20,297 bases of DNA, taken from IMG/VR virus record IMGVR_UViG_3300021960_000675, positions 1 through 20,297 of that record. One strand, written 5' to 3'. The notes under the pieces are model-generated. The model was not told the DNA's origin. It was given only the letters and a program-made list of their open reading frames with translations, and ran no database searches. This document shows, in pieces, positions 4,816 to 20,171 of the stretch (its first letter is position 1; every line of letters starts with the position of its first letter). The position numbers and the translations under genes are program-made. The DNA is from a virus.

Positions 4816-4818
4816 ATT

Positions 4819-5124
4819 ATGATTATTGGTATTAAAACTATTGCTGGTGAAAGTTTGGTTGGTGAGCGTATAGAAAAATTAGGGAACACTAATACCTTAA
4901 CTTTAGCCCAACCATTCAATATTATGATTGCACCCACGGGAAATGGCTCGTATGGGATAGGTCTAGCTCCTTATCTTTCTTTTTCAGATGATAAGGAATT
5001 TTCTTTTGAATCATCTCATATTCTTCATGTATTTGAGCCTGCTGCTGATATTAAGAATGAGTATCACAGATTAACCGGTCGTGGTTTACTTGTGCCTTCT
5101 TCAGGTATTAAAGTCGTAAAATGA
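4819..5124 (+). CDS. Small conserved phage protein, possible Sm-like beta-barrel
   Basis: This 101-residue protein of unknown function starts MIIGIKTIAGESLVGERIEK and continues with a proline-phenylalanine block (LAQPFNIMIAP) and a YGIGLAPYL block. The layout of short beta strands with a G-E-x-L-x-G turn is like small Sm-like proteins seen in T4-like marine phages, but this is only a visual impression. The ribosome site is weak (TTGAG) and falls in the right arm of the hsp20 inverted repeat. Its end overlaps the phosphoribosyltransferase start in an ATGA, so the two genes are probably co-translated. Confidence 0.6.
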   Translation: MIIGIKTIAGESLVGERIEKLGNTNTLTLAQPFNIMIAPTGNGSYGIGLAPYLSFSDDKEFSFESSHILHVFEPAADIKNEYHRLTGRGLLVPSSGIKVVK

Positions 5125-5564: not shown

Positions 5565-5899
5565 GCTATATTACATTTGAGGATATGATACCTCAACGTC
5601 CTACAAGAGGAAGAACCTTTATTATAAGCAGTGGTATTTCAGGTTATGAAAAATATTTGGTGACCAGTAAGAATCGTTTAATGGGGATAAATTTTTCTAC
5701 ATATGAGCACTTGACAAATTTTACTGGAACAATTAGATTTAACGATCATATTGATACAGACAAAGATTACATTGATGAATTTTTTATTATGGACATCGAA
5801 AAAGGAAATGTTCGTAAAATATCATTTAAGACCCGGGGGAGGTTAAATGAAGAGATTTTACACGAATGTTATGCAAAGAGGGAATCAGATATTTGTTAG
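5561..5899 (+). CDS. Hypothetical protein overlapping the polymerase start
   Basis: This 112-residue protein is of unknown function. ATG 5561 overlaps the preceding stop (ATGA) and is preceded by GGGAAAG; an upstream extension to 5549 has only TTG/GTG codons. No known motif is visible. The protein mixes short beta-like stretches (RTFIISSG, TGTIRFND, EFFIMDI) with charged turns. Its last 53 nt overlap the start of gene 43 in another frame, which is long for this window. A promoter candidate lies inside it (5711-5739). The overlap could place polymerase translation under the control of ribosomes finishing this gene. Confidence 0.6.
   Translation: MSYITFEDMIPQRPTRGRTFIISSGISGYEKYLVTSKNRLMGINFSTYEHLTNFTGTIRFNDHIDTDKDYIDEFFIMDIEKGNVRKISFKTRGRLNEEILHECYAKRESDIC
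5711..5739 (+). promoter_or_regulatory. Promoter candidate for gene 43
   Basis: TTGACA at 5711-5716, 17-nt spacer, TAGATT at 5734-5739 in the context TTAGATTTAAC. This matches the TTATATTTAA context of the 11815 and 12080 promoters at all but one base. It lies about 110 nt before the polymerase start and inside the upstream ORF. Confidence 0.5.
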
Positions 5900-8354
5900 A
5901 GAAGTTAATAATGGTGTTAGAGATAATTTTAAAGTAAAATTTTCGCCTAAGCTGTATGTTTTGTCACAAAACGAATCCAAGTATAAGAGTTTGTTTGGTG
6001 ACAATCTAGAAGAACTTAATTTCTCGGACATTAATGATGCAAAAGATTTTTTAACAACCTATAAAGAAACAGAAAATTTTCCAGTATTTGGAAATACTTC
6101 TTATGCATATCAATACATCACAGAGAATTATTCGGGTGATATTGATTATGACATCTCAAACCTATCCATTTTATCGTTGGATATTGAAACAACTTCTGAA
6201 CACGGATTCCCTTCAGTTGATAACCCAATTGAAGAAGTTCTGTTGATAACTGTTCAGAACAATCATACCAAAGAAATCACTACTTTTGGTGTTAAGGATT
6301 TCGATCTATCTAAAACAGAAACTCTTTCTGATAAAAAAGATTTTACCTATGTTAAATGTACGAATGAAATTGACCTATTAAACAGGTTTCTTTTGTTTTG
6401 GGATATGGTCAAGCCTGATATTGTCACAGGCTGGAACATACAGTTATTCGATCTTCCCTATCTTCTAGCTAGAATCAATAGAATACTTGAGGATAAATCT
6501 AAACTTCTTTCTCCTTGGAGAATAGTTAACCCTAGACCTATAACTATTAGTGGTAGGACACAAACTGCGATTGATATTTTAGGTGTTAGTGTATTAGATT
6601 ATTTTGACCTTTACAAAAAATTTACTTACACTACACAAGAAAGCTACAAATTAGATTATATTGCTCAAGTAGAACTGGGTAGAAATAAGTTAGAGAGCAA
6701 CTATGAAACCTTTAAAGATTTCTACACAAATGATTGGTCCAGATTTGTCGAATACAACATCATTGACGTAGAGCTAGTTGATGCTCTTGAAGATAAAATG
6801 AAGTTGATTGAGCTGATCATTACAATGGCCTATGATGCAAAATGTAATTTTACTGATGTTTTTTCTGCTGTTAGAACTTGGGATTGTATTCTTTATAATC
6901 ATCTTTGGAATAAGAATATTATTGTCCCGCCAAAGAAAGACAATCATGATAGAACTATTGCGGGGGCCTATGTTAAAGAACCTATCCCTGGGAAATATGA
7001 ATGGGTTGTGAGTTTTGATGCCGCTTCTCTATATCCTAGCATTATTATGCAATATAATATGAGCCCTGAAACCATGTTGAAAGGTATAACGGTTGACTCG
7101 TCTCCTGAACAACTTCTGGAAGGCAAAAAGAATTATTCTTCTTATGCAAAGGAAAATAAAGCATCCATGGCAGCAAATGGATATTTTTACACACACAATA
7201 AACAAGGACTGTTCCCTGAAATTGTAGAAAAGATTTTTAGTGAGCGTGTGTTTTATAAGAACAAGATGATTCAGGCTGAAAAGGATTACGAAAAAACTAA
7301 AGATCCTAATCAAGTAAAGCTAATTTCTAAGTACAACAATATTCAGATGGCTAGAAAGATTCAGCTTAACTCTCTTTATGGTGCATGGGCTAACAAGTAT
7401 TTCAGATTCTATGATGATAGAATTGCTGAAGGTATTACATTGACTGGTCAATATATTATTCAGTATATTGGTAAGTCTTTGGATGAGTATTTAAATAAGG
7501 TTTGTCAGACGGAAAATATTCAATATACATTTTATTCTGACACAGATAGTTGTTATATCACTTTGGAAAATCTAGTTAACACTTTACCAAAGAATATAGA
7601 TAAAGATAAGATAACTGAAATGTTAGATACATTTTCTAAGGAAAAGATCACAAAGATATTAAACAAGGCTTGTGCTGAGATATCTTCGGCAACCAATGCT
7701 TTTGAGAATAAAATGCTCTTTAAGAGAGAGGTTATTGCTGATCGTGCAGTTTGGGTGGCCAAGAAAAAGTATGCACTAAATGTTTACGATAGTGAAGGTG
7801 TTAGGTATAAGACACCAAAACTAAAGGTACAGGGGCTAGAGATTGTTAGAAGTAGTACTCCAGGTGTTGTCAGAGAATATCTTAAAGAAAGCGTGAAGAT
7901 GGCTCTTACTAAGACGGAGAAGGAACTTCAACAATATATAGCAGATGTTGAGAATGAATTCTCAAAAATGAGTCCGGAAGATATTGCATTTCCTAGAAGT
8001 GCCAATAATATTTCAAAATATTCTTCCAGAGCAGATATATACACGAAGGGAACTCCTATGCACGTCCGAGGATCCTTATTGTACAACCATCACATATCTG
8101 ATAAAAAATTGGATAAGAAGTATGAAAAAATCAAGGAAGGCGACAAAATTAAATATTTGTATTTGAAAGAGCCCAATCCCATTAGAGAAAACAGTATTGC
8201 TTTTATTGGTAAATTGCCTACAGAGCTTGACCTTCATAGGTTTATTGATTATAATACTATGTTTGAAAAGGCCTTTCTTGATCCTATGAAAAGTATTTTA
8301 GATTGTATGGGTTGGAACACTTCTCATGTGGCAACCCTAGATGATTTGTTTTAA
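5847..8354 (+). CDS. 43: Family B DNA polymerase (gp43)
   Basis: This 835-residue replicative polymerase (T4 898) has both active sites intact. The 3'-5' exonuclease motifs are LDIETT (D112, E114), NIQLFD (197-202) and YNIID (303-307). The polymerase motifs are DAASLYPSII (391-400), KIQLNSLYG (504-512) and YSDTDS (563-568), with KKKYALNV further on. The C-terminus ends TLDDLF, like the SLDFLFG tail by which T4-type gp43 binds the gp45 clamp. This is good evidence that it works with the clamp encoded upstream. The start at 5847 has a GGAGG site and lies within the end of the preceding ORF. A possible uvsX promoter lies near the 3' end. Confidence 0.97.
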   Translation: MKRFYTNVMQRGNQIFVREVNNGVRDNFKVKFSPKLYVLSQNESKYKSLFGDNLEELNFSDINDAKDFLTTYKETENFPVFGNTSYAYQYITENYSGDIDYDISNLSILSLDIETTSEHGFPSVDNPIEEVLLITVQNNHTKEITTFGVKDFDLSKTETLSDKKDFTYVKCTNEIDLLNRFLLFWDMVKPDIVTGWNIQLFDLPYLLARINRILEDKSKLLSPWRIVNPRPITISGRTQTAIDILGVSVLDYFDLYKKFTYTTQESYKLDYIAQVELGRNKLESNYETFKDFYTNDWSRFVEYNIIDVELVDALEDKMKLIELIITMAYDAKCNFTDVFSAVRTWDCILYNHLWNKNIIVPPKKDNHDRTIAGAYVKEPIPGKYEWVVSFDAASLYPSIIMQYNMSPETMLKGITVDSSPEQLLEGKKNYSSYAKENKASMAANGYFYTHNKQGLFPEIVEKIFSERVFYKNKMIQAEKDYEKTKDPNQVKLISKYNNIQMARKIQLNSLYGAWANKYFRFYDDRIAEGITLTGQYIIQYIGKSLDEYLNKVCQTENIQYTFYSDTDSCYITLENLVNTLPKNIDKDKITEMLDTFSKEKITKILNKACAEISSATNAFENKMLFKREVIADRAVWVAKKKYALNVYDSEGVRYKTPKLKVQGLEIVRSSTPGVVREYLKESVKMALTKTEKELQQYIADVENEFSKMSPEDIAFPRSANNISKYSSRADIYTKGTPMHVRGSLLYNHHISDKKLDKKYEKIKEGDKIKYLYLKEPNPIRENSIAFIGKLPTELDLHRFIDYNTMFEKAFLDPMKSILDCMGWNTSHVATLDDLF
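8227..8255 (+). promoter_or_regulatory. Promoter candidate for uvsX
   Basis: TTGACC at 8227-8232, 17-nt spacer, perfect TATAAT at 8250-8255. It lies within the last 130 nt of gene 43 and about 120 nt before the uvsX ATG. The boxes are strong, but the context after -10 (ACTATG) differs from the TATATTT set, so it may be a different promoter class or a coincidence. Confidence 0.45.
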
Positions 8355-8372
8355 ATTTAACCGGAGTATAAT

Positions 8373-9422
8373 ATGAGTTTACTTGATAAACTTAAGAAAA
8401 ATTCAACTATTAAAGAAACAGAAATTCTTTCTAGTTCTAAATTTTTCTCTTCAAAAGACATGATTCAAACACCTGTTCCAATGGTCAATGTTGCTTTGTC
8501 TGGAAGATTGGATGGTGGGTTGACTCCTGGGCTTACTGTGTTTGCTGGACCGTCTAAGCATTTTAAAACAGCATTTGCTATGCTACTTTCTAAATCTTAT
8601 ATGGAGAAATATAAGGATGCTGTTCTTTTGTTTTATGATTCAGAGTTTGGTGCTCCAGCAGGCTATTTCGAAAACTTTGGCATTGATACCGAAAGAGTAC
8701 TACATACTCCTATTACAGACATAGAACAACTAAAACACGATATCATGTCTCAGATTAACAATCTAGAACGTGGAGATCATGTTATTATAGTTGTGGACTC
8801 GGTTGGTAATTTGGCTTCCAAGAAGGAAGTGGAGGATGCTCTTGAGGGTAAGAGTGTTGCTGACATGACGAGAGCTAAACAGCTTAAGAGTCTTTTTAGA
8901 ATGTGTACACCTCACTTAACCATTAAGGACATTCCTATGGTTGTTGTGAATCACACATATAAAGAAATAGGACTATTTCCGAAGGATATTGTTTCAGGTG
9001 GTACTGGTGTTTATTATAGTGCTGACAATATCTTTATTATTGGTCGTCAACAGGAAAAGACAGGTCAAGAAGTTACAGGATATAATTTTATTATTAATGT
9101 GGAAAAGTCTCGTTTTGTTAGAGAGAAAAGTAAGATACCTGTTGAGGTATCTTGGGAAGGTGGCATTTCAACCTGGTCTGGTTTAATAAACGTTGCACTT
9201 GAATCAGGTCATGTTATAAAGCCTAGCAATGGTTGGTATCAAAAGGCAGATGAAGAAAAGAAGTATCGTTTGTCTGAAACCAACAGTAAAGAATTTTGGT
9301 TACCAATATTAAATGACGAAACATTCCGTTCCTGGATTAAGCAAAGGTATTCGGTTACTTCCGGCGCAATGGTTGCGGAACTTTCTGACGAATTTATACA
9401 GGAGGAATATGATAATGTCTAA
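8373..9422 (+). CDS. uvsX: UvsX, RecA-like recombinase
   Basis: This 349-residue protein (T4 UvsX 391) is the phage strand-exchange protein used in recombination-dependent replication. Walker A GPSKHFKT at 59-66 is the UvsX-type variant (T4 GPSKSFKS). FYDSEFGAP near 88-94 contains the expected glutamate, Walker B VIIVVDSVGN is at 137-146, and the DNA-binding loop region VSGGTGVYYSAD is at 207-218. The ribosome site GGAG is at 8363-8366, in a leader (TTTAACCGGAG) also found before gp45. The acidic C-terminus is typical of recombinases. The stop overlaps the next start by 8 nt. Confidence 0.95.
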   Translation: MSLLDKLKKNSTIKETEILSSSKFFSSKDMIQTPVPMVNVALSGRLDGGLTPGLTVFAGPSKHFKTAFAMLLSKSYMEKYKDAVLLFYDSEFGAPAGYFENFGIDTERVLHTPITDIEQLKHDIMSQINNLERGDHVIIVVDSVGNLASKKEVEDALEGKSVADMTRAKQLKSLFRMCTPHLTIKDIPMVVVNHTYKEIGLFPKDIVSGGTGVYYSADNIFIIGRQQEKTGQEVTGYNFIINVEKSRFVREKSKIPVEVSWEGGISTWSGLINVALESGHVIKPSNGWYQKADEEKKYRLSETNSKEFWLPILNDETFRSWIKQRYSVTSGAMVAELSDEFIQEEYDNV

Positions 9423-9699
9423 GGTTTCTTTTGAAGTACAAGGTAAAGATGATAAGATTTTTGTGAAAATTACCGAAGGTGAATTTGCGGATGTGGCGTT
9501 TGTTATCAGTGGCATAGAAACAGATGATTCAGAAGAAGGTAAAATAACTGTGGACTATGAATTGATTTCTACACCTAATGATGTTAATTTAGTAGGAGAC
9601 CCGCTATTCGAAAGCGTGTTAAATCCCATACTTATTAAAATCATAACTCATGCCTTGTCTGGAGAAAATGATGAAGTTGGAAACTCTGATACTGAATAA
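9415..9699 (+). CDS. Small hypothetical protein between uvsX and gene 41
   Basis: This 94-residue acidic protein has no known motif. I chose ATG 9415 because AGGAGG at 9400-9405 gives a normal 9-nt gap, whereas the in-frame ATGs at 9409 and 9412 are too close. It starts MSKVSFEVQGKDDKIFVKI, ends in an acidic tail (GENDEVGNSDTE), and looks like a small alpha-beta domain. It overlaps uvsX by 8 nt and gene 41 by 29 nt, so it is in the recombination/helicase translation unit. A small partner of either protein is conceivable, but nothing in the sequence shows it. Confidence 0.65.
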   Translation: MSKVSFEVQGKDDKIFVKITEGEFADVAFVISGIETDDSEEGKITVDYELISTPNDVNLVGDPLFESVLNPILIKIITHALSGENDEVGNSDTE

Positions 9700-11053
9700 T
9701 CTAATTAAAGACGAAGATTTCTTAAGAAGAACTATTCCTTTTATTCGGGATGAATATTTTGTTGATAGTTCAGAAAGAAAAATATTTAAACAGATATTCG
9801 ATTTTGCAGAACAATATAATTCTGCACCTACAAAGGCAGCTTTAGTAATTGAATTTCAAAATGATAAAACTATAACTGAAGATGAATACGAAAAGATTAT
9901 TGGCATACTTGATGAATTTGATGATAGTATTGCTAATAAACAATGGTTATTAGATGAAACAGAAAAATTCTGTAAAGATAAGGCTGTATATAATGCTATC
10001 TTGAGGTCTATTCAAATTATTGATGGTAAAGATAAGATATTAACAAATGAAGCTATTCCTGAAATATTAAAGGATGCTTTATCCGTTGGATTCGATAATT
10101 CGGTTGGTCATGATTATCTTATAGACTCAGACAATCGTTTTGATTTTTATCATAAGGACGAGGAACGCTTGCCTTTTGATTTGGATATGTTTAACAAGGT
10201 AACTAAAGGTGGATTACCTAATAAAACTTTAAACATTGCCTTGGCAGGTACAGGTGTTGGTAAGAGTTTGTTTATGTGTCACATGGCAGCAGCAGCTTTA
10301 AGTCAAGGTAAAAATGTTCTGTATATTACAATGGAAATGGCAGAAGAACGTATTGCAGAACGTATTGATGCTAACTTGATGAATGTGGCAATGAATGATC
10401 TTAAATCATTACCTAAGCAAATGTTTGATGATAGAATTTCAAGAATCAGAAATAAAACCGAAGGTAAACTTATTATTAAGGAATATCCTACAGCATCAGC
10501 ACATTCTGGTCATTTCAGAGCATTGTTAAATGAATTATCTTTGAAGAAAGAATTCAAGCCAGACCTTATCTTTATTGATTATTTGAATATTTGTGCAAGT
10601 AGTAGATTTAAAATGTCAGGTTCGGTCAATACTTATGTTTATATTAAAGGTATTGCAGAAGAACTTCGTGGTTTGGCTGTAGAATTTGATGTTCCAATTG
10701 TATCAGCAACACAAACAACAAGGAGTGGATATGCGAATAGTGATGTGGAACTTACTGATACTTCTGAATCGTTTGGACTTCCAGCTACTGCTGACTTCAT
10801 GTTTGCTCTTATTGTTACAGAAGAGCTAGAAAAATTAGGGCAAATATTAATTAAACAATTAAAAAATAGATATAATGACCCTTCACAATATCGCAGATTT
10901 GTTGTTGGTGTGGACAAATCTAAGATGAGACTTTTTGATTTGGAGATGAGTGCTCAAAAGGATCTCTATGAAACCAAAGAAGTAAAGTTTTTTGAAAAAG
11001 AAAAACCTAATTTTAAGAGAAAAGAATTGGATTTTAGTAGTATAAAAATATAA
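9671..11053 (+). CDS. 41: DnaB-type replicative helicase (gp41)
   Basis: This 460-residue protein (T4 475) is the hexameric 5'-3' helicase that works with the primase at the fork. Walker A AGTGVGKS is at 192-199. The catalytic-glutamate region YITMEMAEERIAERI is near 218-232. Walker B PDLIFIDYLN is near 300, and a later ATQTTRSG block carries the sensor residues. I prefer ATG 9671 over 9650 or 9668 because GGAG at 9661-9664 then has a 6-nt gap, and MKLETLILNNLI lines up with the T4 N-terminus. The stop codon lies inside the TATAAATA late promoter of the next gene. This is the last clear replication gene in the window. Confidence 0.93.
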   Translation: MKLETLILNNLIKDEDFLRRTIPFIRDEYFVDSSERKIFKQIFDFAEQYNSAPTKAALVIEFQNDKTITEDEYEKIIGILDEFDDSIANKQWLLDETEKFCKDKAVYNAILRSIQIIDGKDKILTNEAIPEILKDALSVGFDNSVGHDYLIDSDNRFDFYHKDEERLPFDLDMFNKVTKGGLPNKTLNIALAGTGVGKSLFMCHMAAAALSQGKNVLYITMEMAEERIAERIDANLMNVAMNDLKSLPKQMFDDRISRIRNKTEGKLIIKEYPTASAHSGHFRALLNELSLKKEFKPDLIFIDYLNICASSRFKMSGSVNTYVYIKGIAEELRGLAVEFDVPIVSATQTTRSGYANSDVELTDTSESFGLPATADFMFALIVTEELEKLGQILIKQLKNRYNDPSQYRRFVVGVDKSKMRLFDLEMSAQKDLYETKEVKFFEKEKPNFKRKELDFSSIKI

Positions 11054-11056
11054 ATA
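11049..11056 (+). promoter_or_regulatory. T4-type late promoter TATAAATA
   Basis: Exact TATAAATA, 31 nt before the metallopeptidase ATG. Its bases 3-5 are the TAA stop of gene 41. The stretch continues as a weak A/T dyad to 11065. Confidence 0.7.
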
Positions 11057-11086
11057 TTTTTTATAAACTGTTCAGAGATATAGACC

Positions 11087-11785
11087 ATGTATTATGCTCC
11101 AATTTTATATGAGGATTTGAAAAATAATTTCGGCCCGGAATATATTGGACAAGAATTAAGGTATAGCCAAATTTGTAGAAGGCTGAATAAATTTTTAACA
11201 AAAACAGGATCAAAAGTTAAAACTTATAAAGATCCTACTTTAGAACAGTCTAAAAACAGTAAGTACCAGCCTTTTACATTTTCTGGTTATTACGAGGGAG
11301 ATAAGGAAGAATTTCCGATTACCATTTTTATTCACATGGAACCAAATCGTAATTATTTTAAATTCACTAAAAATAATTATTCTAATTTTATCTTTGTCTT
11401 GTCACAAACAATTCAGCACGAGCTTATCCATTTTTCTCAAGATTGTTTTAGGGATGAAGATTATGAATACTCGGAGCAAGAAAAGACATTAAAGGTAAAG
11501 CATTCTAACCGACTTGGTAAACAGCGTATCCAACAAATTAAATATTTGAGTGATTGGTCAGAAATCGAAGCCTATGCACATGATATTGCAATGGAAATCA
11601 ATTTCTACTATCCTGACCAAAATCACTATCATATTCTTAAGAATATGGAAAAATATCCAAAATTGGTCACCTACCGCTATTTTACTTCGGTTTTTAAGGG
11701 TACCGAATGGTTTGACCTAAAAAAGACCTTAATTTCCAAGATTTTGCGCTGGATTGACTATGCCCCAGTGCCCTATTTCCTGTAG
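11087..11785 (+). CDS. Putative HExxH zinc metallopeptidase
   Basis: This 232-residue protein carries HELIH at residues 111-115 inside a helix (SQTIQHELIHFSQ), the zinc and catalytic motif of many metallopeptidases. About 45 residues on is WSEIEAYAHDIA, whose glutamates (159 and 161) can supply the third zinc ligand. Proteins with this HExxH plus EIEAYA pair are common in T4-like marine phages and are of unknown substrate. No signal peptide or membrane segment is seen, so it should act in the cytoplasm or virion. The late promoter at 11049 suggests late expression, which would fit processing of structural proteins or lysis. That is inference. Confidence 0.75.
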   Translation: MYYAPILYEDLKNNFGPEYIGQELRYSQICRRLNKFLTKTGSKVKTYKDPTLEQSKNSKYQPFTFSGYYEGDKEEFPITIFIHMEPNRNYFKFTKNNYSNFIFVLSQTIQHELIHFSQDCFRDEDYEYSEQEKTLKVKHSNRLGKQRIQQIKYLSDWSEIEAYAHDIAMEINFYYPDQNHYHILKNMEKYPKLVTYRYFTSVFKGTEWFDLKKTLISKILRWIDYAPVPYFL

Positions 11786-11816
11786 GTGCTTATTTTACAA
11801 GCACTTAGAGGTGCTT
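11784..11816. repeat. Three-arm repeat AGGTGCTT / AAGCACTT / AGGTGCTT
   Basis: AGGTGCTT at 11784-11791 and again at 11809-11816 flank its near-complement AAGCACTT at 11799-11806. The middle arm can pair with either side: eight pairs on the left with one G-U, six on the right. The right copy overlaps the -35 box at 11815, and the left begins in the stop codon of the peptidase. There is no T tract. It may be an operator, an attenuating leader or a weak terminator. Confidence 0.6.
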
Positions 11817-11843
11817 GACAAACACACCAATATCTGTTATATT
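11815..11843 (+). promoter_or_regulatory. Strong sigma70-like promoter
   Basis: TTGACA at 11815-11820, 17-nt spacer, TATATT at 11838-11843, context GTTATATTTAAT. It is intergenic and directly precedes the 64-residue gene. Its twin is at 12080. Confidence 0.85.
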
Positions 11844-11881
11844 TAATATATACAAAATTAACTCTCTCAGGAGAAAAAAAC

Positions 11882-12076
11882 ATGAGTAAGTGGGATTTCG
11901 ATCATCTTGATGAGATCGAAGAAATGTATGAAAATTGGTCTTCCGTAGAAAAGATTCGCAGGAAGAAGCCACGTAAGTCTGAATTTGGTGATACGGTTCG
12001 CCGTGATCAAAAGAACAACTTCCATCAGGAGCGTCAAATCAAGAATCATGATCCGGAGTATGATACAGAATTCTAG
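11882..12076 (+). CDS. Small charged hypothetical protein
   Basis: This 64-residue protein is not recognised. It is supported by a strong promoter 40 nt upstream and a well-placed AGGAG (11869-11873). It begins with an acidic half (KWDFDHLDEIEEMYENW), followed by a basic patch (KIRRKKPRK) and a polar tail ending DPEYDTEF. A small two-charge protein with its own strong early promoter fits the pattern of host-takeover factors, but nothing identifies a target. Codon use (CGT, AAG, CGC) is unlike the AT-rich replication genes. The next promoter's -35 box begins 4 nt after the stop. Confidence 0.65.
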   Translation: MSKWDFDHLDEIEEMYENWSSVEKIRRKKPRKSEFGDTVRRDQKNNFHQERQIKNHDPEYDTEF

Positions 12077-12079
12077 GAC

Positions 12080-12108
12080 TTGACAAGTTGGATTGGTTGT
12101 GTTATATT
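12080..12108 (+). promoter_or_regulatory. Strong sigma70-like promoter
   Basis: TTGACA at 12080-12085, 17-nt spacer, TATATT at 12103-12108, context GTTATATTTAAT. The 12 bases around -10 are identical to those at 11815. It drives the 93-residue gene. Confidence 0.85.
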
Positions 12109-12146
12109 TAATGTGTAAGTAGTCAAACTCAAACAGGAGAATTATT

Positions 12147-12428
12147 ATGCGTAACAGTGATCAGGTAACGGACGTTTGCTTCACTACAGGTGGTAATACT
12201 GCTGCAGGTCAGGACATGGGAACTAAGGTTCGTTTCACTAATGACAAGGTTCGCCGTGTAAAGATCTTTCGGCGTCTTGGTGTTCAGACTCAGCATTGGA
12301 TTTCTCTTGGTCGTCCTATGACCAAGGCCGAGGCTGTGACCTATCTTCAGAGCACCGAAGACAATACTATCCGTAGCAACACTGCATATCAGGATGCAAT
12401 TGCTCACGCTGCCGCTCGGCTCCTGTAA
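12147..12428 (+). CDS. Hypothetical early protein
   Basis: This 93-residue protein is not recognised. It starts MRNSDQVTDVCFTTGGNTAA, has a basic middle (VRRVKIFRRLG) and ends with an alanine-rich helix (QDAIAHAAARLL). It forms a complete single-gene unit: strong promoter at 12080, ribosome site in the leader AAACTCAAACAGGAG, and an intrinsic terminator whose loop holds the stop codon. Such a compact unit implies strong, separate early expression. Codon use is GC-richer than the replication genes. No domain can be assigned. Confidence 0.7.
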   Translation: MRNSDQVTDVCFTTGGNTAAGQDMGTKVRFTNDKVRRVKIFRRLGVQTQHWISLGRPMTKAEAVTYLQSTEDNTIRSNTAYQDAIAHAAARLL

Positions 12429-12452
12429 TAGGAGCCCTGCGGTACCTTTTTT
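12412..12452 (+). terminator. Intrinsic terminator overlapping the stop codon
   Basis: GGCTCCT (12418-12424) pairs with AGGAGCC (12430-12436) around the loop GTAAT. CCGC (12412-12415) pairs with GCGG (12439-12442) beyond a 2x2 internal loop. A six-T run follows at 12447-12452. The TAA stop of the 93-residue gene is in the loop. Confidence 0.85.
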
Positions 12453-12527
12453 CTAGGTTAGTGGTGACCCTCATTAAAAACCACACTTTTTGATGTGATT
12501 TGATTAAACTCAAAACAGGAGTATATT
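12453..12527 (+). other. Leader of the winged-helix gene
   Basis: Seventy-five bases without a convincing promoter. GTGGT (12461-12465) can pair with ACCAC (12480-12484), followed by five Ts, so a second weak terminator or attenuator is possible. The ribosome-site leader AAACTCAAAACAGGAG (12506-12521) nearly repeats 12125-12139 before the previous gene. Confidence 0.4.
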
Positions 12528-12773
12528 ATGACTCAGAATGAACGTCTCGTTGGTTATCTGTCTTCCGGTCGCAGCATTTCCGCTGCACAGGCTCGTTCCA
12601 TGTTCGGAATTCAGCGCCTTTCGGCTCGTATTCACGACCTTCGTAATGAGGGATTCTGTGTTTACACCAACGTTAACAATGCTGGTCGTACCACCTATCG
12701 TCTTGGTACACCTAGCCGCCAGATCGTTAGCGCAGCTTATGCTGTTGGTGGCGCCGACTTCTTCGGCCGTTAA
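12528..12773 (+). CDS. Winged helix-turn-helix small protein
   Basis: This 81-residue protein resembles a small winged-helix family common in phages. NERLVGYLSSGRSISAAQARSMFGI gives helices 1 and 2, QRLSARIHDLRNEGF the recognition helix, and VYTNVNNAGRTTYRLG the beta wing. Here the first block is longer than one motif and is given only as landmarks at residues 4-28. DNA binding is therefore likely, as a local regulator or a host-directed factor. The gene lies after a terminator and has no clear promoter of its own, so it may depend on read-through. The following ORF starts 1 nt after its stop. Confidence 0.75.
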   Translation: MTQNERLVGYLSSGRSISAAQARSMFGIQRLSARIHDLRNEGFCVYTNVNNAGRTTYRLGTPSRQIVSAAYAVGGADFFGR

Positions 12774-12774
12774 A

Positions 12775-12963
12775 ATGGTTCAGGAGGCCATGGGCGAAGT
12801 AATGCCCATGGCCTCCTCCATGGACCTAGACAGGGATGAACACGTTCTAAATAATATTATAAGAATGATTGCCGAAGCCCCAAATGAAAGTATGCAAGAA
12901 CTTTGGCAAAAGAAGTATGTAGAATTCACATCCAAACTAAAATCCAAGGTGTCCAATGTCTGA
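12775..12963 (+). CDS. Small hypothetical protein with a hairpin over its start region
   Basis: This is a 62-residue frame if begun at ATG 12775, which directly follows the preceding stop and may be reached by re-initiation. ATGs at 12790, 12802, 12808 and 12820 are also in frame. The frame stays open upstream of 12775, but that part is a shadow of the winged-helix gene. The C-terminal part (DEHVLNNIIRMIAEAPNESM, then QELWQKKYVEF) reads like a real helical protein. The first 15 codons contain a 14-bp perfect hairpin that buries AGGAGG and ATG 12790. It overlaps the next gene by 8 nt. Function unknown; start uncertain. Confidence 0.55.
   Translation: MVQEAMGEVMPMASSMDLDRDEHVLNNIIRMIAEAPNESMQELWQKKYVEFTSKLKSKVSNV
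12782..12817 (+). promoter_or_regulatory. Perfect 14-bp hairpin over AGGAGG and ATG
   Basis: AGGAGGCCATGGGC (12782-12795) is exactly complementary to 12804-12817, with an 8-nt loop GAAGTAAT. The stem holds a full ribosome-binding consensus and the ATG at 12790. No T tract follows on this strand, so it is not a standard terminator. Likely roles are translational control or RNA processing and stability. Confidence 0.75.
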
Positions 12964-13234
12964 AGAAAGATTTCTCCTTTTTGAGAAGATTGCTGACAAA
13001 ATTACGAGACACATGGAAATAGATTGGAATTTACCTAATGCAGAATCTATAGAGATCGAGGATGCTGCTATATCCAACATTATTTTTTATGAAGAGCTTT
13101 TGGATGAATATAATGAAGATCTCTCAGAAGGTGAGATGGAGCTCATTATGAAAAGACTCATGGAAGGATATGTTGCTCTCTCTATAATCGAAAGAAAAAG
13201 AGCCATAGAAGAACTTATTAACGGTGTTCTATAA
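12956..13234 (+). CDS. Acidic helical hypothetical protein
   Basis: This 92-residue, strongly acidic, mostly helical protein has no recognised motif. It starts MSEERFLLFEKIADKITRHM and has an acidic middle (EYNEDLSEGEMELIM). The ribosome site AAGGTG is well placed, and the start overlaps the preceding gene by 8 nt, suggesting coupling to it. Its TAA stop lies inside the late promoter at 13230. It may be a small protein-binding factor, but this rests on composition alone. Confidence 0.6.
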   Translation: MSEERFLLFEKIADKITRHMEIDWNLPNAESIEIEDAAISNIIFYEELLDEYNEDLSEGEMELIMKRLMEGYVALSIIERKRAIEELINGVL

Positions 13235-13237
13235 ATA
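13230..13237 (+). promoter_or_regulatory. T4-type late promoter TATAAATA
   Basis: Exact TATAAATA followed by ATAC, 26 nt before the ATG at 13264. It contains the stop codon of the preceding gene and shares the 12-base string TATAAATAATAC with 15059. Confidence 0.8.
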
Positions 13238-13263
13238 ATACAAAACCTTTATCGGTTAGTATC

Positions 13264-15051
13264 ATGGCTGAATCCAAACAAAACAAACATCTAGAACATT
13301 TAGAAGATGATATTATCAATCTGGGCTATGAAGGCGCAGAGAGAAGTATTGCCTTCTTAGAAGCTCTTTTGCAATTGTTTTCAGGAAACAACAATAGTTC
13401 TATCGACATCACGGTTAAATGGGACGGTGCTCCTGCTGTGGTTGCGGGTCCTGATCCTGCAACAGGTTTGTTCTTTGTAGCAACTAAGCACGCCGCTTTT
13501 GGTAAAACTCCTAAACTTTGTTTCAGTGAAAAATTAATTGATTATTATCATGATGGTGGTTTGGCTGAAACTTTAAAAGTTGCTTTTCGGGAATTATCTG
13601 AGGTGGGCATGACCGAAGTTCTTCAAGGTGATATCATGTTTACACCAGACAGAAAAAAAGAACAGATTATAGACGGTGTGAAGCACATTACTTTTAAACC
13701 AAACACCATTATGTATGCTGTTCCCAAGGATGATCCTTTAGGAAAAATCATTGATAATTCAAACCTTGGAGTAGTGTTTCATACTAAATATTCTGGAAGG
13801 GAAGCAGTTAATAAAATGACTGCTTCGTTTGGTGTTGATGTTAGCAAGCTAAAATCTAAAACCGCCTGGATCAAGGACGCATCCTATTCTGATATGTCAG
13901 GAAAGGCTACGTTAACTGCACAGGAAACTAGAACGGTTAGTTCAACATTGGCTAATGCTAAAAGGAATGCCACAGCAGCAAAAAAGTTTTTGGATGAATT
14001 GGCAACACAGAAAACAGATCTAACTATTGGTTATATGTTTAAGATCTTTATCAACGGATTAGTTCGTGATGGTAAAGAAATAAATCAAACCAATATTAAT
14101 CAAGGGTTAGAAAAGTTTATTATTGATAGAATAAAAAAGAAAGAAGAAACAGTTAAGACAGCTGCAGCCAAAGAAAGATATAAAGGCATTCAGGCTGAAA
14201 TTAAAAATTATCTTTCTGATAATAGAACTCAATTAAATAGCATGATTAAATTATATTCAGATTTAGTTGTGCTAAAAAATATCTTTGTTGTACAGCTTAA
14301 CAAGGTTCAAGGAATTCCTACCTTTGTTGAGACAGAAAAGGGATTTCAGCACACAGACCCAGAAGGATATGTTGCTATAGATAAATCCGGCGCGGCAGTA
14401 AAACTTATTAACCGAATGGAATTCTCACAGGCTAACTTCAATGCCGTGAAAGATTGGAGTTCGCCTCCTCCAGAACCAACAGAGCCGCCACAGAAATTAA
14501 AAACCATGGTGTTTGCTTTCGGCCGTATGAATCCTCCAACTACTGGCCATAAAAAACTAGTAAGTAAAGTAAAGAGTATTGCGCTCAGAGAAAAGGGTGA
14601 TCACACCATCGTTCTTTCCAAAACTCAGAAAGCACCTAAAGATCCTTTGTCGCCTGAAGATAAATTGTTTTATGCTAAAAAAATGTTCCCACAAACCAAT
14701 CTTGAAATTGCTACTGATACATTAAACACCTTCTTGAAATGGTTGGAACATTGGAATGGTAAATACGATAAGATTGTTATGGTAGGTGGTTCTGATCGTG
14801 TTGCAGAGTTTCAGAAAACTATTAGTCAATATAATGGTAAGCTATACACGTTTAAGATTGTTGATGTAGAAAGTGCAGGTGAACGTGATGCAGACAGCGA
14901 GGGTGTTAGTGGTATGTCTGCTAGTAAAATGCGTGCTTTTGCCGAACAAAATGATCTTAAAAAATTCAAAACAGGTATCCCTCCTGGGACTTTATCTCCT
15001 AACCAAATAAAAGAATTGATGGAAAAAGTGCAAAAAGGTATGACGAAATAA
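13264..15051 (+). CDS. Two-headed protein: ligase-like KWDG domain plus HxGH-type nucleotidyltransferase
   Basis: This is a 595-residue late protein. Residues 1-400 match a family widespread in T4-like marine phages that I recall as DUF6267. VKWDGAPAVV (51-60) has the KxDG motif at which ligases and capping enzymes bind nucleotide covalently. LQGDIMF (120-126) could be motif III, PEGYVAI (366-372) motif IV and AVKLINR (378-384) motif V. A long helical insert (about 215-350) separates the halves. After a proline-rich linker (400-410), residues 411-595 form a second domain with FGRMNPPTTGHKKL (419-432), the T/HxGH motif of cytidylyl/NMN-adenylyltransferases. It also has VMVGGSDR (505-512) and SGMSASKMR (549-557), like the ISSTxxR motif. 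The start follows a late promoter with a weak ribosome site. Substrates are unknown; the ligase-fold reading is inference. Confidence 0.75.
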   Translation: MAESKQNKHLEHLEDDIINLGYEGAERSIAFLEALLQLFSGNNNSSIDITVKWDGAPAVVAGPDPATGLFFVATKHAAFGKTPKLCFSEKLIDYYHDGGLAETLKVAFRELSEVGMTEVLQGDIMFTPDRKKEQIIDGVKHITFKPNTIMYAVPKDDPLGKIIDNSNLGVVFHTKYSGREAVNKMTASFGVDVSKLKSKTAWIKDASYSDMSGKATLTAQETRTVSSTLANAKRNATAAKKFLDELATQKTDLTIGYMFKIFINGLVRDGKEINQTNINQGLEKFIIDRIKKKEETVKTAAAKERYKGIQAEIKNYLSDNRTQLNSMIKLYSDLVVLKNIFVVQLNKVQGIPTFVETEKGFQHTDPEGYVAIDKSGAAVKLINRMEFSQANFNAVKDWSSPPPEPTEPPQKLKTMVFAFGRMNPPTTGHKKLVSKVKSIALREKGDHTIVLSKTQKAPKDPLSPEDKLFYAKKMFPQTNLEIATDTLNTFLKWLEHWNGKYDKIVMVGGSDRVAEFQKTISQYNGKLYTFKIVDVESAGERDADSEGVSGMSASKMRAFAEQNDLKKFKTGIPPGTLSPNQIKELMEKVQKGMTK

Positions 15052-15058
15052 GTATTCT

Positions 15059-15066
15059 TATAAATA
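15059..15066 (+). promoter_or_regulatory. T4-type late promoter TATAAATA
   Basis: Exact TATAAATA followed by ATAC, 30 nt before the ATG at 15097 and intergenic. Confidence 0.85.
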
Positions 15067-15096
15067 ATACTAGAATTCTTTCATGTTGGAGATTAC

Positions 15097-16857
15097 ATGG
15101 CTCAATACATTAAATCCTCAGATACCCAAGATGGCGAGCAAAGATATGAAGTAATGATGCTTGCTGCTGGAAAGGATGGTAGTGTCGTTGAAGCAACCAA
15201 CCCATTACCGGTTACATTGGGTTCTGAAAATGTGAACATCACCGGTCCTGTGACCATTCCAGGAACTGTGGAAATCAATAATGATAGTGGTAATCCCATC
15301 CCAGTGAGCAGAAACACCACAGTTAATTCTTCATCTAATCCGTTATATATTTCCGGTCAAGTACAATCTACCTCCTCTTCTGCTGCTGGAGAATCAGCAT
15401 TTGGAGAACTTTCCACCATACAAATTGTTCCCAAGATTCAAGGCGATGCTGTTTATGGTTTAGATCCAAGGGAATTTCAGACATTTACATTTGCTAATGG
15501 TACTGCTACTAACAGCAATAGTCGTTTTAACGTAACAGCTACATCTGATGCAAATTCTTATGGTGTTATCAGAAGTACAAACTTTCTAAGGTATAAACCC
15601 GGTCAAGGTGCTCTTTGTAGACTTACTGCCTCTTTTTCTTCTAATCCTGTAGGATTTACACAAAGAGCAGGGTTATTTAATCAAGAGAATGCCATCCAAA
15701 TTGGATATGATAGCGTGACAGGTAACTTTGGTGTGCTTCGTGCCAATGGTGGTAAAACTCATATCGAAGAATTTTCGTTCAGTGCCCTAAACAATGGAGA
15801 CGTTACTGTTACCCTTAATGGTACAACCTTTACTGCAATAACTTTATCAGGTGGAACAATTGCAGCTAACCTAGCTCAACTATCTGCTGGCCTTCGTTTA
15901 CAAGCTGCTTTTACTGCACGGTATACTGAGGAATATGATCAAGCAAAGATTTCGTTCTTGCCAACTTCTCTAGGACTTCAGTCTGGAACATTTAATATGA
16001 CCAGCACTGCGACAATAACGTTTACTAAAACAACTAAACAGACGGGAGTTGCTCAGACAGAAAACTGGACGTTCCAGAATGACTTTAGTGTTGATAAGTT
16101 AGACGGTACAGGAGCATCTGGTGTGACCTTAGATCCGACTAAACTTAATGTGTATCAAATTAATTTTAGATGGTTAGGTGCTGGTGAGATTAGATATGCA
16201 GTTGAGGACCCTAATACTGGGAACATGATCTTTTTTCACCATGAACATTATACAAACAGATTTGAAACTCCTCATCTTGATAATCCATCAATGAAGATTG
16301 GATACGTTGCGGCAAACCTTGGTGCGGTAAGTGGATCTGTTAGTTGTAGAGGCGCGTCCTTTATGGGCGCGAATGAAGGTAAGGTCCAGCCTACCAGAGT
16401 TCCATATTCTGTGACAGCTACTAGAACGGGTAGTATGAATGTTCCAGGGTCTTTCTATCACTTGATATCACTTAAAAACAAACTTATCTATCAAGGGAAG
16501 ATTAATACAAGAGATCTTCTTCCAAGGAGATTAACTGCTTCTGTTAATACTACAGGCGACCCTGCAATTATTCGGTTGTTTTTCAACCCAACATTTGCAA
16601 ACAATATGCAATGGTTAACACAAACAGATTTTAATGCTTCACTTTATGCAACTCAGGATAGTACAGGGTTGTTTATTTTAGGTTCGCAGGCAATACCACC
16701 TGTCGCAGCATTCCATGTTTCCAACGGAGACACAATAGACGTTGATTTGCTGAATCTTTCTATTGATGTACCACCAAATAATATATTAACCGCTGTTATT
16801 ACTTCTACAAGTAATATCACACAAGCAAGTGCATCATTTATCTACGTTGAAGATTAA
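15097..16857 (+). CDS. Virion structural / fibre-like protein
   Basis: This 586-residue protein is rich in Ser, Thr, Asn and Gly and low in Cys, as typical of phage fibre or decoration proteins. The N-terminal 100 residues are beta-rich with repeated V-x-I/V-x-G-P/T patterns (NVNITGPVTIPGTVEI). A central domain (about 155-290) has YKPGQGALCRLTASFSS, RAGLFNQENAIQIGYDS and NFGVLRANGG, an architecture like lectin-type jelly rolls seen in viral fibre proteins. The C-terminal third looks like further beta domains. A ribosome site (GGAG) and a late promoter precede it. It may be an adsorption or head/tail decoration protein; the exact role is unknown. Confidence 0.65.
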   Translation: MAQYIKSSDTQDGEQRYEVMMLAAGKDGSVVEATNPLPVTLGSENVNITGPVTIPGTVEINNDSGNPIPVSRNTTVNSSSNPLYISGQVQSTSSSAAGESAFGELSTIQIVPKIQGDAVYGLDPREFQTFTFANGTATNSNSRFNVTATSDANSYGVIRSTNFLRYKPGQGALCRLTASFSSNPVGFTQRAGLFNQENAIQIGYDSVTGNFGVLRANGGKTHIEEFSFSALNNGDVTVTLNGTTFTAITLSGGTIAANLAQLSAGLRLQAAFTARYTEEYDQAKISFLPTSLGLQSGTFNMTSTATITFTKTTKQTGVAQTENWTFQNDFSVDKLDGTGASGVTLDPTKLNVYQINFRWLGAGEIRYAVEDPNTGNMIFFHHEHYTNRFETPHLDNPSMKIGYVAANLGAVSGSVSCRGASFMGANEGKVQPTRVPYSVTATRTGSMNVPGSFYHLISLKNKLIYQGKINTRDLLPRRLTASVNTTGDPAIIRLFFNPTFANNMQWLTQTDFNASLYATQDSTGLFILGSQAIPPVAAFHVSNGDTIDVDLLNLSIDVPPNNILTAVITSTSNITQASASFIYVED

Positions 16858-17969: not shown

Positions 17970-19160
17970 ATGGAAAACACAATAACAGAAGAACTAGGCC
18001 GAGACAATGAATGGGGTCGTCCTGAATTAACTAAAAAAATGATGGACGCAACTCCAGGTCAAGGTAAAATTAAAACGTTTAATGAATATTTTCATCATGA
18101 CATTGAGGCTGAAACTGCTATTGTACACCAAGAGTTAAATCCTGTAGCTTGGGATGGTATGAATTTAAAGCCTGAAATCAGAAAAGCATTATTGAAAATT
18201 GCTAGTGATTTTGTTGGTACATGGGATATGGAGTTCCCAATTACAGATATAATTCTTACAGGTTCTAACGCAAATTATAACTGGACTAAGTATAGCGACT
18301 TTGATCTTCATGTTGTAGTTAACATGGGTGAGTCAGGCGTTACAAAAGATTTAGTAAAAAACTTATTAAATACTAAGAAAAATTTATATAACAATCAACA
18401 TAATATCAAAATTAAGGGATATGATGTTGAATTATATGCACAAGATAGATCCGAACATCATGTAGCATCAGGACAGTATAGTTTAAAACATGACAGATGG
18501 TTGGTTATTCCTACTATGCAAAGACCTAACTTTGCTCATAATAATATTCAGAAAAAGGCAGGAGAAATACTTGCTCAAGCCGAAGAGGCTTTAGAACAAA
18601 GAGACGAGCAAGTTCTTCGTGGTTTATTAAAGAAGATTGCAAAAATGAGAAAATCAGGTCTTGAAAGAGCTGGAGAATTTTCTGATGAGAACATGGCATT
18701 TAAAGTTCTTAGAAATTCAGGTATTATAGAAAAGATTCGTAATGCTATTGTTGAAATATCTGATAAAGCCATGTCTGTAAACGGAGATACTGTTGATCCT
18801 GTTAGTGAGGGATTAACACCAGCTGGTCGTGTTAAGAGACAAATTGCTATTAGAAAGAATCGTTGGAAGTTACAACGTCGTGCAAAGATTGCAAAAGGTA
18901 TTTCTGCCAGCAAAAGAAGAATTACAAGAAGAACCAAATTAACTGCAATAAGAAAAATTTACAAAAATATTGCAGGAGTAAAGTCTAGAAAAGGTCTTTC
19001 TTCTACACAAAAATCTGCTTTAGAAAAAGTTTATAAGCAACGCGGAAAACAATATCGTAAGTCTGTAGAAATTGCTACACAGCCAAAACTTCGTGTTGCT
19101 GATACAAAACGTGTAACTAAAGCAACTAAATATAAGACAATTAAAAAAGGTCAGAGATAA
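17970..19160 (+). CDS. Pol-beta-type nucleotidyltransferase with a very basic C-terminal domain
   Basis: This 396-residue protein has the pol-beta nucleotidyltransferase signature GSNANYNWTKYSDFDLH (98-114), with GS followed by SDFD. The third acidic residue is likely in YDVELY (151-156). Residues 1-45 contain the late-protein-like KTFNEYF. From about 278 to 396 the sequence is extremely Lys/Arg-rich (KRQIAIRKNRWKLQRRAKIA), ending with a block LSSTQKSALEKVYKQRGKQY. A similar basic domain occurs at the end of several proteins of T4-like marine phages. The enzyme could transfer nucleotides to RNA, protein or a small molecule; the tail suggests nucleic-acid binding. It overlaps the next gene by 1 nt. 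Substrate unknown. Confidence 0.75.
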   Translation: MENTITEELGRDNEWGRPELTKKMMDATPGQGKIKTFNEYFHHDIEAETAIVHQELNPVAWDGMNLKPEIRKALLKIASDFVGTWDMEFPITDIILTGSNANYNWTKYSDFDLHVVVNMGESGVTKDLVKNLLNTKKNLYNNQHNIKIKGYDVELYAQDRSEHHVASGQYSLKHDRWLVIPTMQRPNFAHNNIQKKAGEILAQAEEALEQRDEQVLRGLLKKIAKMRKSGLERAGEFSDENMAFKVLRNSGIIEKIRNAIVEISDKAMSVNGDTVDPVSEGLTPAGRVKRQIAIRKNRWKLQRRAKIAKGISASKRRITRRTKLTAIRKIYKNIAGVKSRKGLSSTQKSALEKVYKQRGKQYRKSVEIATQPKLRVADTKRVTKATKYKTIKKGQR

Positions 19161-19508: not shown

Positions 19509-20171
19509 ATGGAAAACAATCTTCAAGAACAAGTAAACATGAAGCAGGTAGAAGAACTGCTTCGTATGGGCCTAATGCCTGTAGAAAACATTCCATGGAT
19601 TGCAAAAGGACTTGCACACATGGAACGTGATGCCTTTCTACCTCTTGTTGAAAGAAGAATAACTTATGATTTCCTTCGTAGAATTTTAGCACTGGTATTC
19701 GAGGATCAACTTATGTATCGTTTAGTTAGACAAAAAATTGCAATGCAAAAATATCGTTATGAGGAAAAAAATCCTTGCTGGAAAGGCTACAGACAACTTG
19801 GAACAAAAATGAAAAATGGAAAAGAAGTTCCTAACTGTGTACCTATTTCAGAAGCTATGAAAGCAAAATCTAAGCCAGGTGTAGATCTAAAGAAAACACC
19901 TGAAGGAATGCTTTCAACTTTAGCCGGCGCCGCTGAAAGAAAAGCCAAAGCAGGTGGTAAAGTTTCTCCTGATGAAAAGAAACTAGCCTCAAAAGCCAAA
20001 ACAGAACTTCGTCGCCGTCGTGATAATTTAAATAAAGAAGATTATGAAAAAGCATTTTCAATGGCATTACAAGAATACAATATTGATAACGTTTCTGAAT
20101 TGTCTAACGAAGACGCAAAAGAGTTTTTAAATAAAGTAGAAGAAATTTTCAATTCAAATCTAGGAGAATAA
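19509..20171 (+). CDS. Conserved late protein with a PCWKGY motif
   Basis: This 220-residue protein has a helical N-terminal half followed by NPCWKGYRQLGTK (88-100) and GKEVPNCVP (104-112). This short Cys-Trp...Pro-Asn-Cys block is repeated in many proteins of T4-like environmental phages and often sits next to head or prohead genes. Two cysteines (90, 110) could pair or bind metal. After the motif comes a Lys/Ala-rich region (AAERKAKAGGKVSPDEKKLA) and an acidic helical C-terminus (NEDAKEFLNKVEEIF). A late promoter precedes it, and the ribosome site is weak. No catalytic signature is seen; a virion or assembly role is inferred only from context. Confidence 0.65.
   Translation: MENNLQEQVNMKQVEELLRMGLMPVENIPWIAKGLAHMERDAFLPLVERRITYDFLRRILALVFEDQLMYRLVRQKIAMQKYRYEEKNPCWKGYRQLGTKMKNGKEVPNCVPISEAMKAKSKPGVDLKKTPEGMLSTLAGAAERKAKAGGKVSPDEKKLASKAKTELRRRRDNLNKEDYEKAFSMALQEYNIDNVSELSNEDAKEFLNKVEEIFNSNLGE

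What the first reader, a model, noticed from the sequence alone, without database searches (positions are those of the whole stretch)
13264..15051. Late protein joining a ligase-like KxDG domain to an HxGH nucleotidyltransferase
Two unrelated nucleotide-transfer active sites appear to be fused. The N-terminal part has KWDG, PEGYVAI and VKLINR in the order of covalent nucleotidyltransferase motifs I, IV and V, with an unusually long insert between. The C-terminal part has TTGHKKL and a SASKMR element as in NMN-adenylyl or cytidylyltransferases. The N-terminal family is very common in marine T4-like phages yet has no known role. One half could make an activated nucleotide and the other use it, for example in RNA repair, NAD-linked capping or protein tagging.
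Basis: partly seen in the sequence, partly recalled or inferred. Interest (0 to 1): 0.7.

Follow-up and report, generated by a model that had tools for sequence, protein, structure and literature searches.

The report
Phage ligase-like enzyme fused to adenylyltransferase
A late protein of a marine T4-like virus joins a domain folded like RNA ligases to a domain folded like NAD- or CoA-making adenylyltransferases; in related viruses the two are neighbouring genes that often carry a peptide tag like the one T4 uses to load proteins into its head, so they may be enzymes that the virus brings into the cell.

Summary
ORF 13264-15051 (595 aa) is Pfam DUF6267 (aa 7-396) fused to an HxGH nucleotidyltransferase (aa ~413-595). 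AlphaFold2 models DUF6267 at pLDDT 90.5. All 50 best PDB entries in the structural second look are RNA or DNA ligases (top: Naegleria RNA ligase, Z 8.7). That Z is middling and Foldseek alone gave no significant hit, but K52xDG, Q121xD123, E367GxV and K380 are invariant in 74 relatives. The second lysine of ligase motif V is missing. A ~170-aa helical insert separates motifs IIIa and IV; most cyanophage forms lack it. The C-terminal domain matches CoaD/NadM/NadD adenylyltransferases (Z 12-13.7).

New here: in relatives the two halves are usually neighbouring genes, and many of these proteins begin like T4's capsid-targeting sequence (MKTYQEFIAEA). HxGH homologues with such N-termini were detected in virions of two cyanophages by mass spectrometry (published). 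The window protein lacks the peptide but follows an exact late promoter. P-loop kinases, HAD phosphatases and Pol-beta nucleotidyltransferases with similar N-termini lie nearby. I favour a self-adenylylating, RNA-ligase-like enzyme working beside an NMN-type adenylyltransferase, in most relatives as virion cargo. Substrates are unknown; no activity was tested.

The parts
13264..15051 (+). Fused protein, 595 aa: DUF6267 + HxGH adenylyltransferase-like
13264..14448 (+). DUF6267 domain, aa 1-395: ligase-type nucleotidyltransferase fold with helical insert
   Evidence: Pfam E 1.6e-105; AF2 pLDDT 90.5, pTM 0.87; PDB second look, all 50 top entries ligases
13288..13308 (+). H9-x-x-H12-x-E14-D15, N-terminal signature of unknown role (D15 nearly invariant)
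13417..13428 (+). Motif I-like K52-W-D-G; K52 is the predicted nucleotidyl-accepting lysine
   Evidence: K, D, G invariant in 74 sequences
13624..13632 (+). Motif III-like Q121-G-D123 (Asp where ligases have Glu)
13693..13716 (+). Motif IIIa-like F144-K-P-N147-T148-I-M-Y151
13801..14313 (+). Mostly helical insert, aa ~180-350, between motifs IIIa and IV
   Evidence: DSSP of model; largely absent from short forms
14362..14373 (+). Motif IV-like E367-G-Y-V
   Evidence: E, G, V invariant; only stretch aligned by hhalign with T4 Rnl1, weakly
14401..14415 (+). Motif V-like K380-L-I-N-R384 (second Lys of KxK absent)
   Evidence: K380 and R384 invariant
14449..14499 (+). Low-confidence linker, aa ~396-412
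   Evidence: pLDDT under 50
14500..15048 (+). HxGH nucleotidyltransferase domain, aa 413-595
   Evidence: PHROG 3041 E 1.4e-60; CoaD Z 13.7, NadM Z 13.1
14539..14550 (+). T426-T-G-H429, (T/H)xGH motif
   Evidence: T, G, H invariant in 22 sequences
14917..14934 (+). S552-A-S-K-M-R557, SxSKxR element
   Evidence: first S and R invariant, middle S and K nearly so
13230..13237 (+). Exact T4-type late promoter TATAAATA, 26 nt before the ATG
   Evidence: in 10 of 19 fused-gene upstream regions against 0.8% of random 70-mers
15059..15066 (+). TATAAATA before the next gene (15097, virion structural protein)
17970..19160 (+). Pol-beta-type nucleotidyltransferase in the same late region; homologue of S-CREM2 gp156, which is in that phage's virion proteome
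   Evidence: PF01909; 35% identity, E 6e-40; Table 3 of PMC10665884
19160..19465 (+). DUF6321 protein that begins MLSFSEFIVEAAP, resembling T4's MKTYQEFIAEA

Best explanation
The protein is a two-headed nucleotide-transfer enzyme. Step 1 (strong inference): the N-terminal domain has the covalent nucleotidyltransferase fold and transfers AMP from ATP (or NAD+) to K52. Step 2 (inference): as in RNA ligases without an OB domain, the AMP is passed to a nucleic-acid 5' end, most likely RNA, which is then sealed; the helical insert would bind the substrate. Step 3 (inference): the HxGH domain is an adenylyltransferase, most likely joining ATP to NMN to give NAD+, either to restore NAD+ consumed by host defence or to recycle NMN for its partner. 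Step 4 (supported for relatives, not for the window): in many relatives one or both proteins carry a T4-like capsid-targeting peptide, are packed into the head and act at once after injection, as T4 internal proteins and Alt do. The window's clade fused the two genes and has no such peptide; its protein is made late and is either carried in by a partner or acts in the producing cell.
For: Fold: AF2 pLDDT 90.5, pTM 0.87; all 50 top entries of the PDB second look are covalent nucleotidyltransferases, RNA ligases first: NgrRnl Z 8.7 (186 aligned, 3.9 A), TbREL1 8.3, T4 Rnl2 7.5, T4 Rnl1 7.3, DNA ligases 6.5 and below. Motif residues invariant and in ligase order. C-domain: CoaD Z 13.7, NadM 13.1, NadD about 12; Foldseek E down to 2e-5. 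Link of the halves: 29 fused and 86 downstream-neighbour loci of 184; a divergent group has a different HxGH gene directly upstream; one phage without it nearby has it 6.7 kb on. Targeting peptide: T4-register pattern in 49 of 119 unfused DUF6267 and 14 of 72 unfused HxGH N-termini against 37 of 823 other genes (Fisher 4e-26, 2e-5); T4 ipII and ipIII fit it. S-SCSM1 (MKSFLQFLKEAAES) and S-CREM2 (MKNFSSFLTEADEK) HxGH proteins are reported in virions by mass spectrometry (PMC9602691; PMC10665884). RNA-repair-type neighbours with similar N-termini: AAA_33/zeta-type kinases, HAD, Pol-beta.
Against: Foldseek found no hit with E under 0.3 for the N-domain, and a best Z of 7-8 is typical even of models without a clear match (note). 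No sequence-profile link to known ligases. Motif V lacks its second lysine and motif III has Asp for Glu. No OB or other known nucleic-acid-binding domain was identified. Short DUF6267 proteins have no targeting peptide and are not listed in the virion proteomes of S-SCSM1 and S-CREM2. The window protein has no such peptide. The S-CREM2 authors themselves say that carry-over in CsCl purification is possible. RNA and NMN as substrates rest on analogy only.
Confidence: 0.42

Rival explanations
1. NAD+ counter-defence: the HxGH domain makes NAD+ (NMN adenylyltransferase) to offset NAD+-depleting host defences, and the DUF6267 domain uses or regulates the nucleotide, for example by NAD+-dependent self-modification, without joining nucleic acids.
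For: C-domain closest to CoaD, NadM and NadD; homologues annotated NMNAT and found in virions; some relatives fuse HxGH to a P-loop kinase, and jumbo phages fuse NMN adenylyltransferase to a nicotinamide-riboside kinase (PMC7824862).
Against: Scores far below the NadR equivalog cut-off (13 against 341 bits); the P-loop domain is AAA_33/zeta-type; CoaD is an equally good structural match; an invariant ligase-type active site in DUF6267 would be unexplained.
Confidence: 0.22
2. DUF6267 is a DNA ligase that replaces T4 gp30, which many marine T4-like phages lack.
For: HTVC008M, S-SCSM1, S-CREM2, P-SSM2, Melnitz-3 and S-RIM14 have DUF6267 but no match to four known ligase families, whereas T4 has three ligases and no DUF6267.
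Against: S-CRM01, DLP_6 and two long contigs, one of which carries the fused form, have both DUF6267 and a DNA ligase; no OB domain identified; RNA ligases are the nearest folds; late promoter, and capsid-type N-termini on long forms.
Confidence: 0.12
3. Degenerate or non-ligase use of the fold: DUF6267 transfers a nucleotide to a protein (tagging) or is a structural internal head protein that has kept a nucleotide pocket.
For: Altered motifs III and V; no known nucleic-acid-binding domain identified; late expression; virion-type context.
Against: Strict invariance of K, D, E and K through 28% identity is hard to explain without catalysis.
Confidence: 0.15
4. Chance resemblance: DUF6267 has a new fold that merely contains KxDG, EGxV and VKL strings.
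For: No sequence-profile match; Foldseek hits not significant.
Against: All 50 top entries of the structural second look belong to one superfamily, and the motifs sit in strand and loop positions expected for that fold.
Confidence: 0.09

Closest known systems
RNA ligases of the covalent nucleotidyltransferase superfamily (NgrRnl, TbREL1, T4 Rnl2, T4 Rnl1)
   Same: Predicted fold; order of motifs I (KxDG), III, IIIa, IV (EGxV) and V (first Lys); no OB domain C-terminal to the core was identified
   Different: No detectable sequence similarity; Asp for Glu in motif III; KxxxR for KxK in motif V; mostly helical insert of about 170 aa between IIIa and IV; fused to an HxGH domain
HxGH adenylyltransferases: CoaD (PPAT), NadM, NadD and the cyanophage 'cytidyltransferase/NMNAT' (PHROG 3041/395)
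   Same: Fold (Z 12-13.7), (T/H)xGH and SxSKxR-type elements; PHROG membership
   Different: Below curated cut-offs for NadR and PF01467; fused to DUF6267; substrate unknown
T4 internal head proteins IPI-IPIII and Alt
   Same: Many unfused DUF6267 and HxGH relatives begin like the T4 capsid-targeting sequence; HxGH homologues reported in virions
   Different: Predicted enzymes rather than small basic proteins; the window's own fused protein lacks the peptide
Phage RNA-repair sets (ligase + PNK-type kinase + HAD phosphatase + RlaP Pol-beta; PMC7824862)
   Same: P-loop kinase, HAD and Pol-beta genes occur around DUF6267/HxGH, several with capsid-type N-termini
   Different: Ligase-like component is DUF6267, not Rnl1, Rnl2 or RtcB; predicted delivery inside the virion

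Membership tests
Covalent nucleotidyltransferase (ligase) superfamily | Motif I KxDG with nucleotidyl-accepting lysine | tested here: met
   K52, D54, G55 invariant in 74 sequences; labelling not testable
Covalent nucleotidyltransferase (ligase) superfamily | Motifs III, IIIa, IV in order on the expected strands | tested here: met
   Q121GD123 in E119-126, Y151 in E150-154, E367 beside E369-372; Asp instead of Glu in III
Covalent nucleotidyltransferase (ligase) superfamily | Motif V KxK | tested here: not met
   K380 kept, second Lys replaced (KLINR; KLV[ND]R in the family consensus)
Covalent nucleotidyltransferase (ligase) superfamily | Nucleotidyltransferase fold | tested here: inconclusive
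   All 50 top rows ligases, best Z 8.7, but Foldseek not significant and Z near the range of unrelated models
Rnl1 (PF09511), Rnl2 (PF09414) or other known ligase family | Sequence match to the family model | tested here: not met
   Only one of 74 members touches PF09511 (E 0.017, among noise); no ligase in PDB profile search
HxGH adenylyltransferases (CoaD/NMNAT type) | Fold plus (T/H)xGH and SxTxxR-like motifs | tested here: met
   second motif is SASKMR
NadR-type NMN adenylyltransferase | NCBIfam TIGR01526 cut-off | tested here: not met
   13.3 against 341 bits
CTP_transf_like PF01467 | Pfam gathering score | tested here: not met
   window 15.2 against 21 bits; relative L119 reaches 23.3
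T4-type internal (capsid-targeted) proteins | N-terminal capsid-targeting sequence | tested here: not met
   Window protein starts MAESKQNKHLEH; fused clade 0 of 16. Met by 49 of 119 unfused DUF6267 and 14 of 72 unfused HxGH relatives
T4-type internal (capsid-targeted) proteins | Presence in virions | not testable with these tools
   Published for HxGH homologues of S-SCSM1 and S-CREM2; no data for long or fused forms

The most novel reading that the evidence does not exclude
Marine T4-like phages carry a new family of polynucleotide ligase (DUF6267) paired with an NAD+-forming enzyme, together with a kinase, a phosphatase and a Pol-beta nucleotidyltransferase, as a repair kit packed into the virion by T4-style capsid-targeting peptides and injected with the DNA to mend RNA cut by host defences at the first moment of infection.
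Probability: 0.2. Interest if true: 0.88.

Novelty: new variant of a known kind. Interest (0 to 1): 0.62.

Why it matters
DUF6267 is found in hundreds of sequenced cyanophages and in pelagiphages and methylophilales phages, with no role assigned and no paper in the held library. A ligase-like reading gives a definite residue (K52) and assay. The capsid-targeting-like N-termini give a simple sequence rule that predicts which marine phage proteins are injected, would explain why NMNAT-like proteins keep turning up in cyanophage virion proteomes, and extend a T4 paradigm to some of the most abundant ocean viruses.

Tried and rejected
Sequence and profile comparison with PDB chains and with T4 Rnl1, Rnl2 and gp30: no ligase link beyond a 19-column motif IV-V match to Rnl1. 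Mixed alignment A3 misaligned N-only rows onto the C-domain and was not used; A4 and A5 were used instead. 'Missing gp30' idea: weakened because four DUF6267-bearing genomes or contigs also have a DNA ligase, one of them holding the fused form. Universal virion role of DUF6267: dropped, because the short forms lack the peptide and are not listed in virion proteomes. Paper searches: none on DUF6267; no marine-phage paper among those on capsid targeting sequences. Distances in the active site could not be measured because model coordinates are not exported. The absence of Rnl1 in the second set of genomes lacks a positive control in that run; T4 served as one.

Full report
WHAT IS THERE. The window is a 20.3-kb viral record with the T4-like replication block sliding clamp, clamp loader, regA, DNA polymerase, UvsX and gp41 helicase, assigned here by reading the translations, followed by a late region. 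ORF 13264-15051 (+) is a single 595-aa frame. Residues 7-396 are Pfam DUF6267 (E 1.6e-105; PHROG 455). Residues 406-594 match PHROG 3041 and 395, 'cytidyltransferase'.

N-TERMINAL HALF. In 74 relatives K52, D54, G55, Q121, D123, N147, T148, Y151, E367, G368, V370, K380 and R384 are invariant, as are H9, H12 and E14 near the N-terminus. AlphaFold2 gives a confident model (pLDDT 90.5, pTM 0.87). Foldseek alone is not significant, but in the structural second look all 50 top PDB entries are ligases, with RNA ligases first (NgrRnl Z 8.7, TbREL1 8.3, T4 Rnl2 7.5, T4 Rnl1 7.3). A Z of 7-8 can occur without relationship, so the argument rests on the combination: one superfamily filling the list, invariant residues, and motif positions on the right strands. 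Departures from textbook ligases are Asp for Glu in motif III and loss of the second motif V lysine. Residues ~180-350 form a mostly helical insert; ~295-aa cyanophage forms largely lack it and keep every motif.

C-TERMINAL HALF. The full-length model (pLDDT 84.4, pTM 0.63) leaves the domain arrangement uncertain. The C-domain matches CoaD (Z 13.7), NadM (13.1) and NadD (about 12), with Foldseek E down to 2e-5. It is an adenylyltransferase by fold; NMN and phosphopantetheine cannot be told apart here, and the NadR cut-off is not met.

THE TWO HALVES BELONG TOGETHER. Of 184 loci, 29 have the fusion (one clade), 86 have the HxGH gene as a separate downstream gene, usually within a few hundred bases or overlapping, and 69 show none, many being truncated. 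In a divergent group (27% identity) a different HxGH gene lies directly upstream. A 169-kb contig without it nearby has it 6.7 kb downstream. Unfused HxGH proteins are themselves fused to P-loop kinase, Pol-beta nucleotidyltransferase, RimK ATP-grasp, PAP2 or HNH modules in various phages.

A CAPSID-TARGETING-LIKE PEPTIDE. T4 packs internal proteins through a cleaved 10-residue N-terminal sequence; residues 4 and 7 matter for targeting and 8 and 10 for processing (PMC9026906). T4 ipII and ipIII start MKTYQEFIAEA. Unfused DUF6267 and HxGH proteins start, for example, MYSFKQYLNEAKNTHLEHLED, MKFLEYITEAKEGKN or MKTFNGFLVEAKEKG. A pattern in T4 register is found in 49 of 119 unfused DUF6267 and 14 of 72 unfused HxGH N-termini, against 37 of 823 other genes of the same loci and 0 of 16 fused proteins (Fisher 4e-26 and 2e-5, no correction for relatedness). 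Looser patterns give 69 of 119, 44 of 72 and 97 of 823 and 10 of 118 T4 genes. HxGH proteins of S-SCSM1 (MKSFLQFLKEAAES) and S-CREM2 (MKNFSSFLTEADEK) carry it, and both were detected in virions by mass spectrometry (PMC9602691; PMC10665884), though the S-CREM2 authors caution about co-purification. The short DUF6267 proteins of the same two phages lack the peptide and are not listed as virion proteins. So a head-cargo role is well supported for HxGH proteins, suggested by sequence for many long DUF6267 proteins, and not shown for the window's fused protein.

LATE EXPRESSION. TATAAATA occurs five times on the + strand of the window; four copies lie 24-31 nt before the start codons of genes 11087, 13264, 15097 and 19509. 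Ten of 19 fused-gene upstream regions have it, against 0.8% of random 70-mers. Downstream of the fusion lie a virion structural protein (15097), a Pol-beta nucleotidyltransferase (17970) whose S-CREM2 homologue is in the virion proteome, and a DUF6321 protein starting MLSFSEFIVEAAP (19160).

MECHANISM. I propose that DUF6267 loads AMP on K52 and passes it to a nucleic-acid end, most likely RNA, and that the HxGH domain makes NAD+ or a related dinucleotide. Kinase (AAA_33/zeta type), HAD and Pol-beta genes with capsid-type N-termini nearby resemble published phage RNA-repair sets (PMC7824862). Shown: sequence, motifs, neighbourhood, late promoter. Predicted: both folds. Inferred: catalysis, substrates, packaging of the DUF6267 half.

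KNOWN OR NEW. T4 has gp30, Rnl1 and Rnl2 and no DUF6267. HTVC008M, S-SCSM1, S-CREM2, P-SSM2, Melnitz-3 and S-RIM14 have DUF6267 and match none of four known ligase families. S-CRM01, DLP_6 and two contigs have DUF6267 and a DNA ligase. No paper in the held library mentions DUF6267. I rate this a new variant of a known kind: a probable new branch of the ligase fold, in a new fusion, in a T4-like delivery setting.

Noticed in passing
L081, L118, L110, L150 and similar HxGH proteins: HxGH proteins of many marine phages run to 400-1200 aa as strings of modules (DUF5824-like, HNH, PAP2, DUF192-like, CWxxHKQVGxKxKxGKxVPNCVP) joined by xLDE-type linkers; these resemble head-protease sites and suggest polyproteins cut apart in the prohead.
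   Followed up: partly
L064-L068, 3306-3929: A different HxGH family (GAFKPPHKGH) with the N-terminus MKTFKQFLLEA sits directly upstream of the most divergent DUF6267 genes.
   Followed up: partly
L115, 5185-8550: Four consecutive genes with capsid-targeting-like N-termini (MKTFKHYLTE, MKSFTQHLKEA and others); three share a VFHTT-type motif that looks ADP-ribosyltransferase-like; no Pfam match for the one scanned.
   Followed up: partly
HTVC008M (L191) 3767-16426: The cluster after gp41 has several N-termini like T4 internal proteins (MLSFTGYSNLSEA, MKSFKDFQNVNE, MKTFTDFSTD): a candidate internal-protein island.
   Followed up: partly
window 19509-20171: Shares a CWxGYxxxGxK...NCV module with S-CREM2 gp160, which is in the S-CREM2 virion proteome.
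   Followed up: partly
window 11087-11785: Late-promoter gene without family match; ELIHFSQD looks like part of a zinc-protease site.
   Followed up: no
L149-L184 (genome contigs): Matches in bacterial and archaeal genome assemblies look mostly like phage contigs binned into MAGs.
   Followed up: no
P-SSM2 58600-59475, S-CREM2 gp87, S-SCSM1_257: Short DUF6267 genes sit among small hypothetical genes away from the HxGH gene, suggesting a separate, perhaps early, role.
   Followed up: partly
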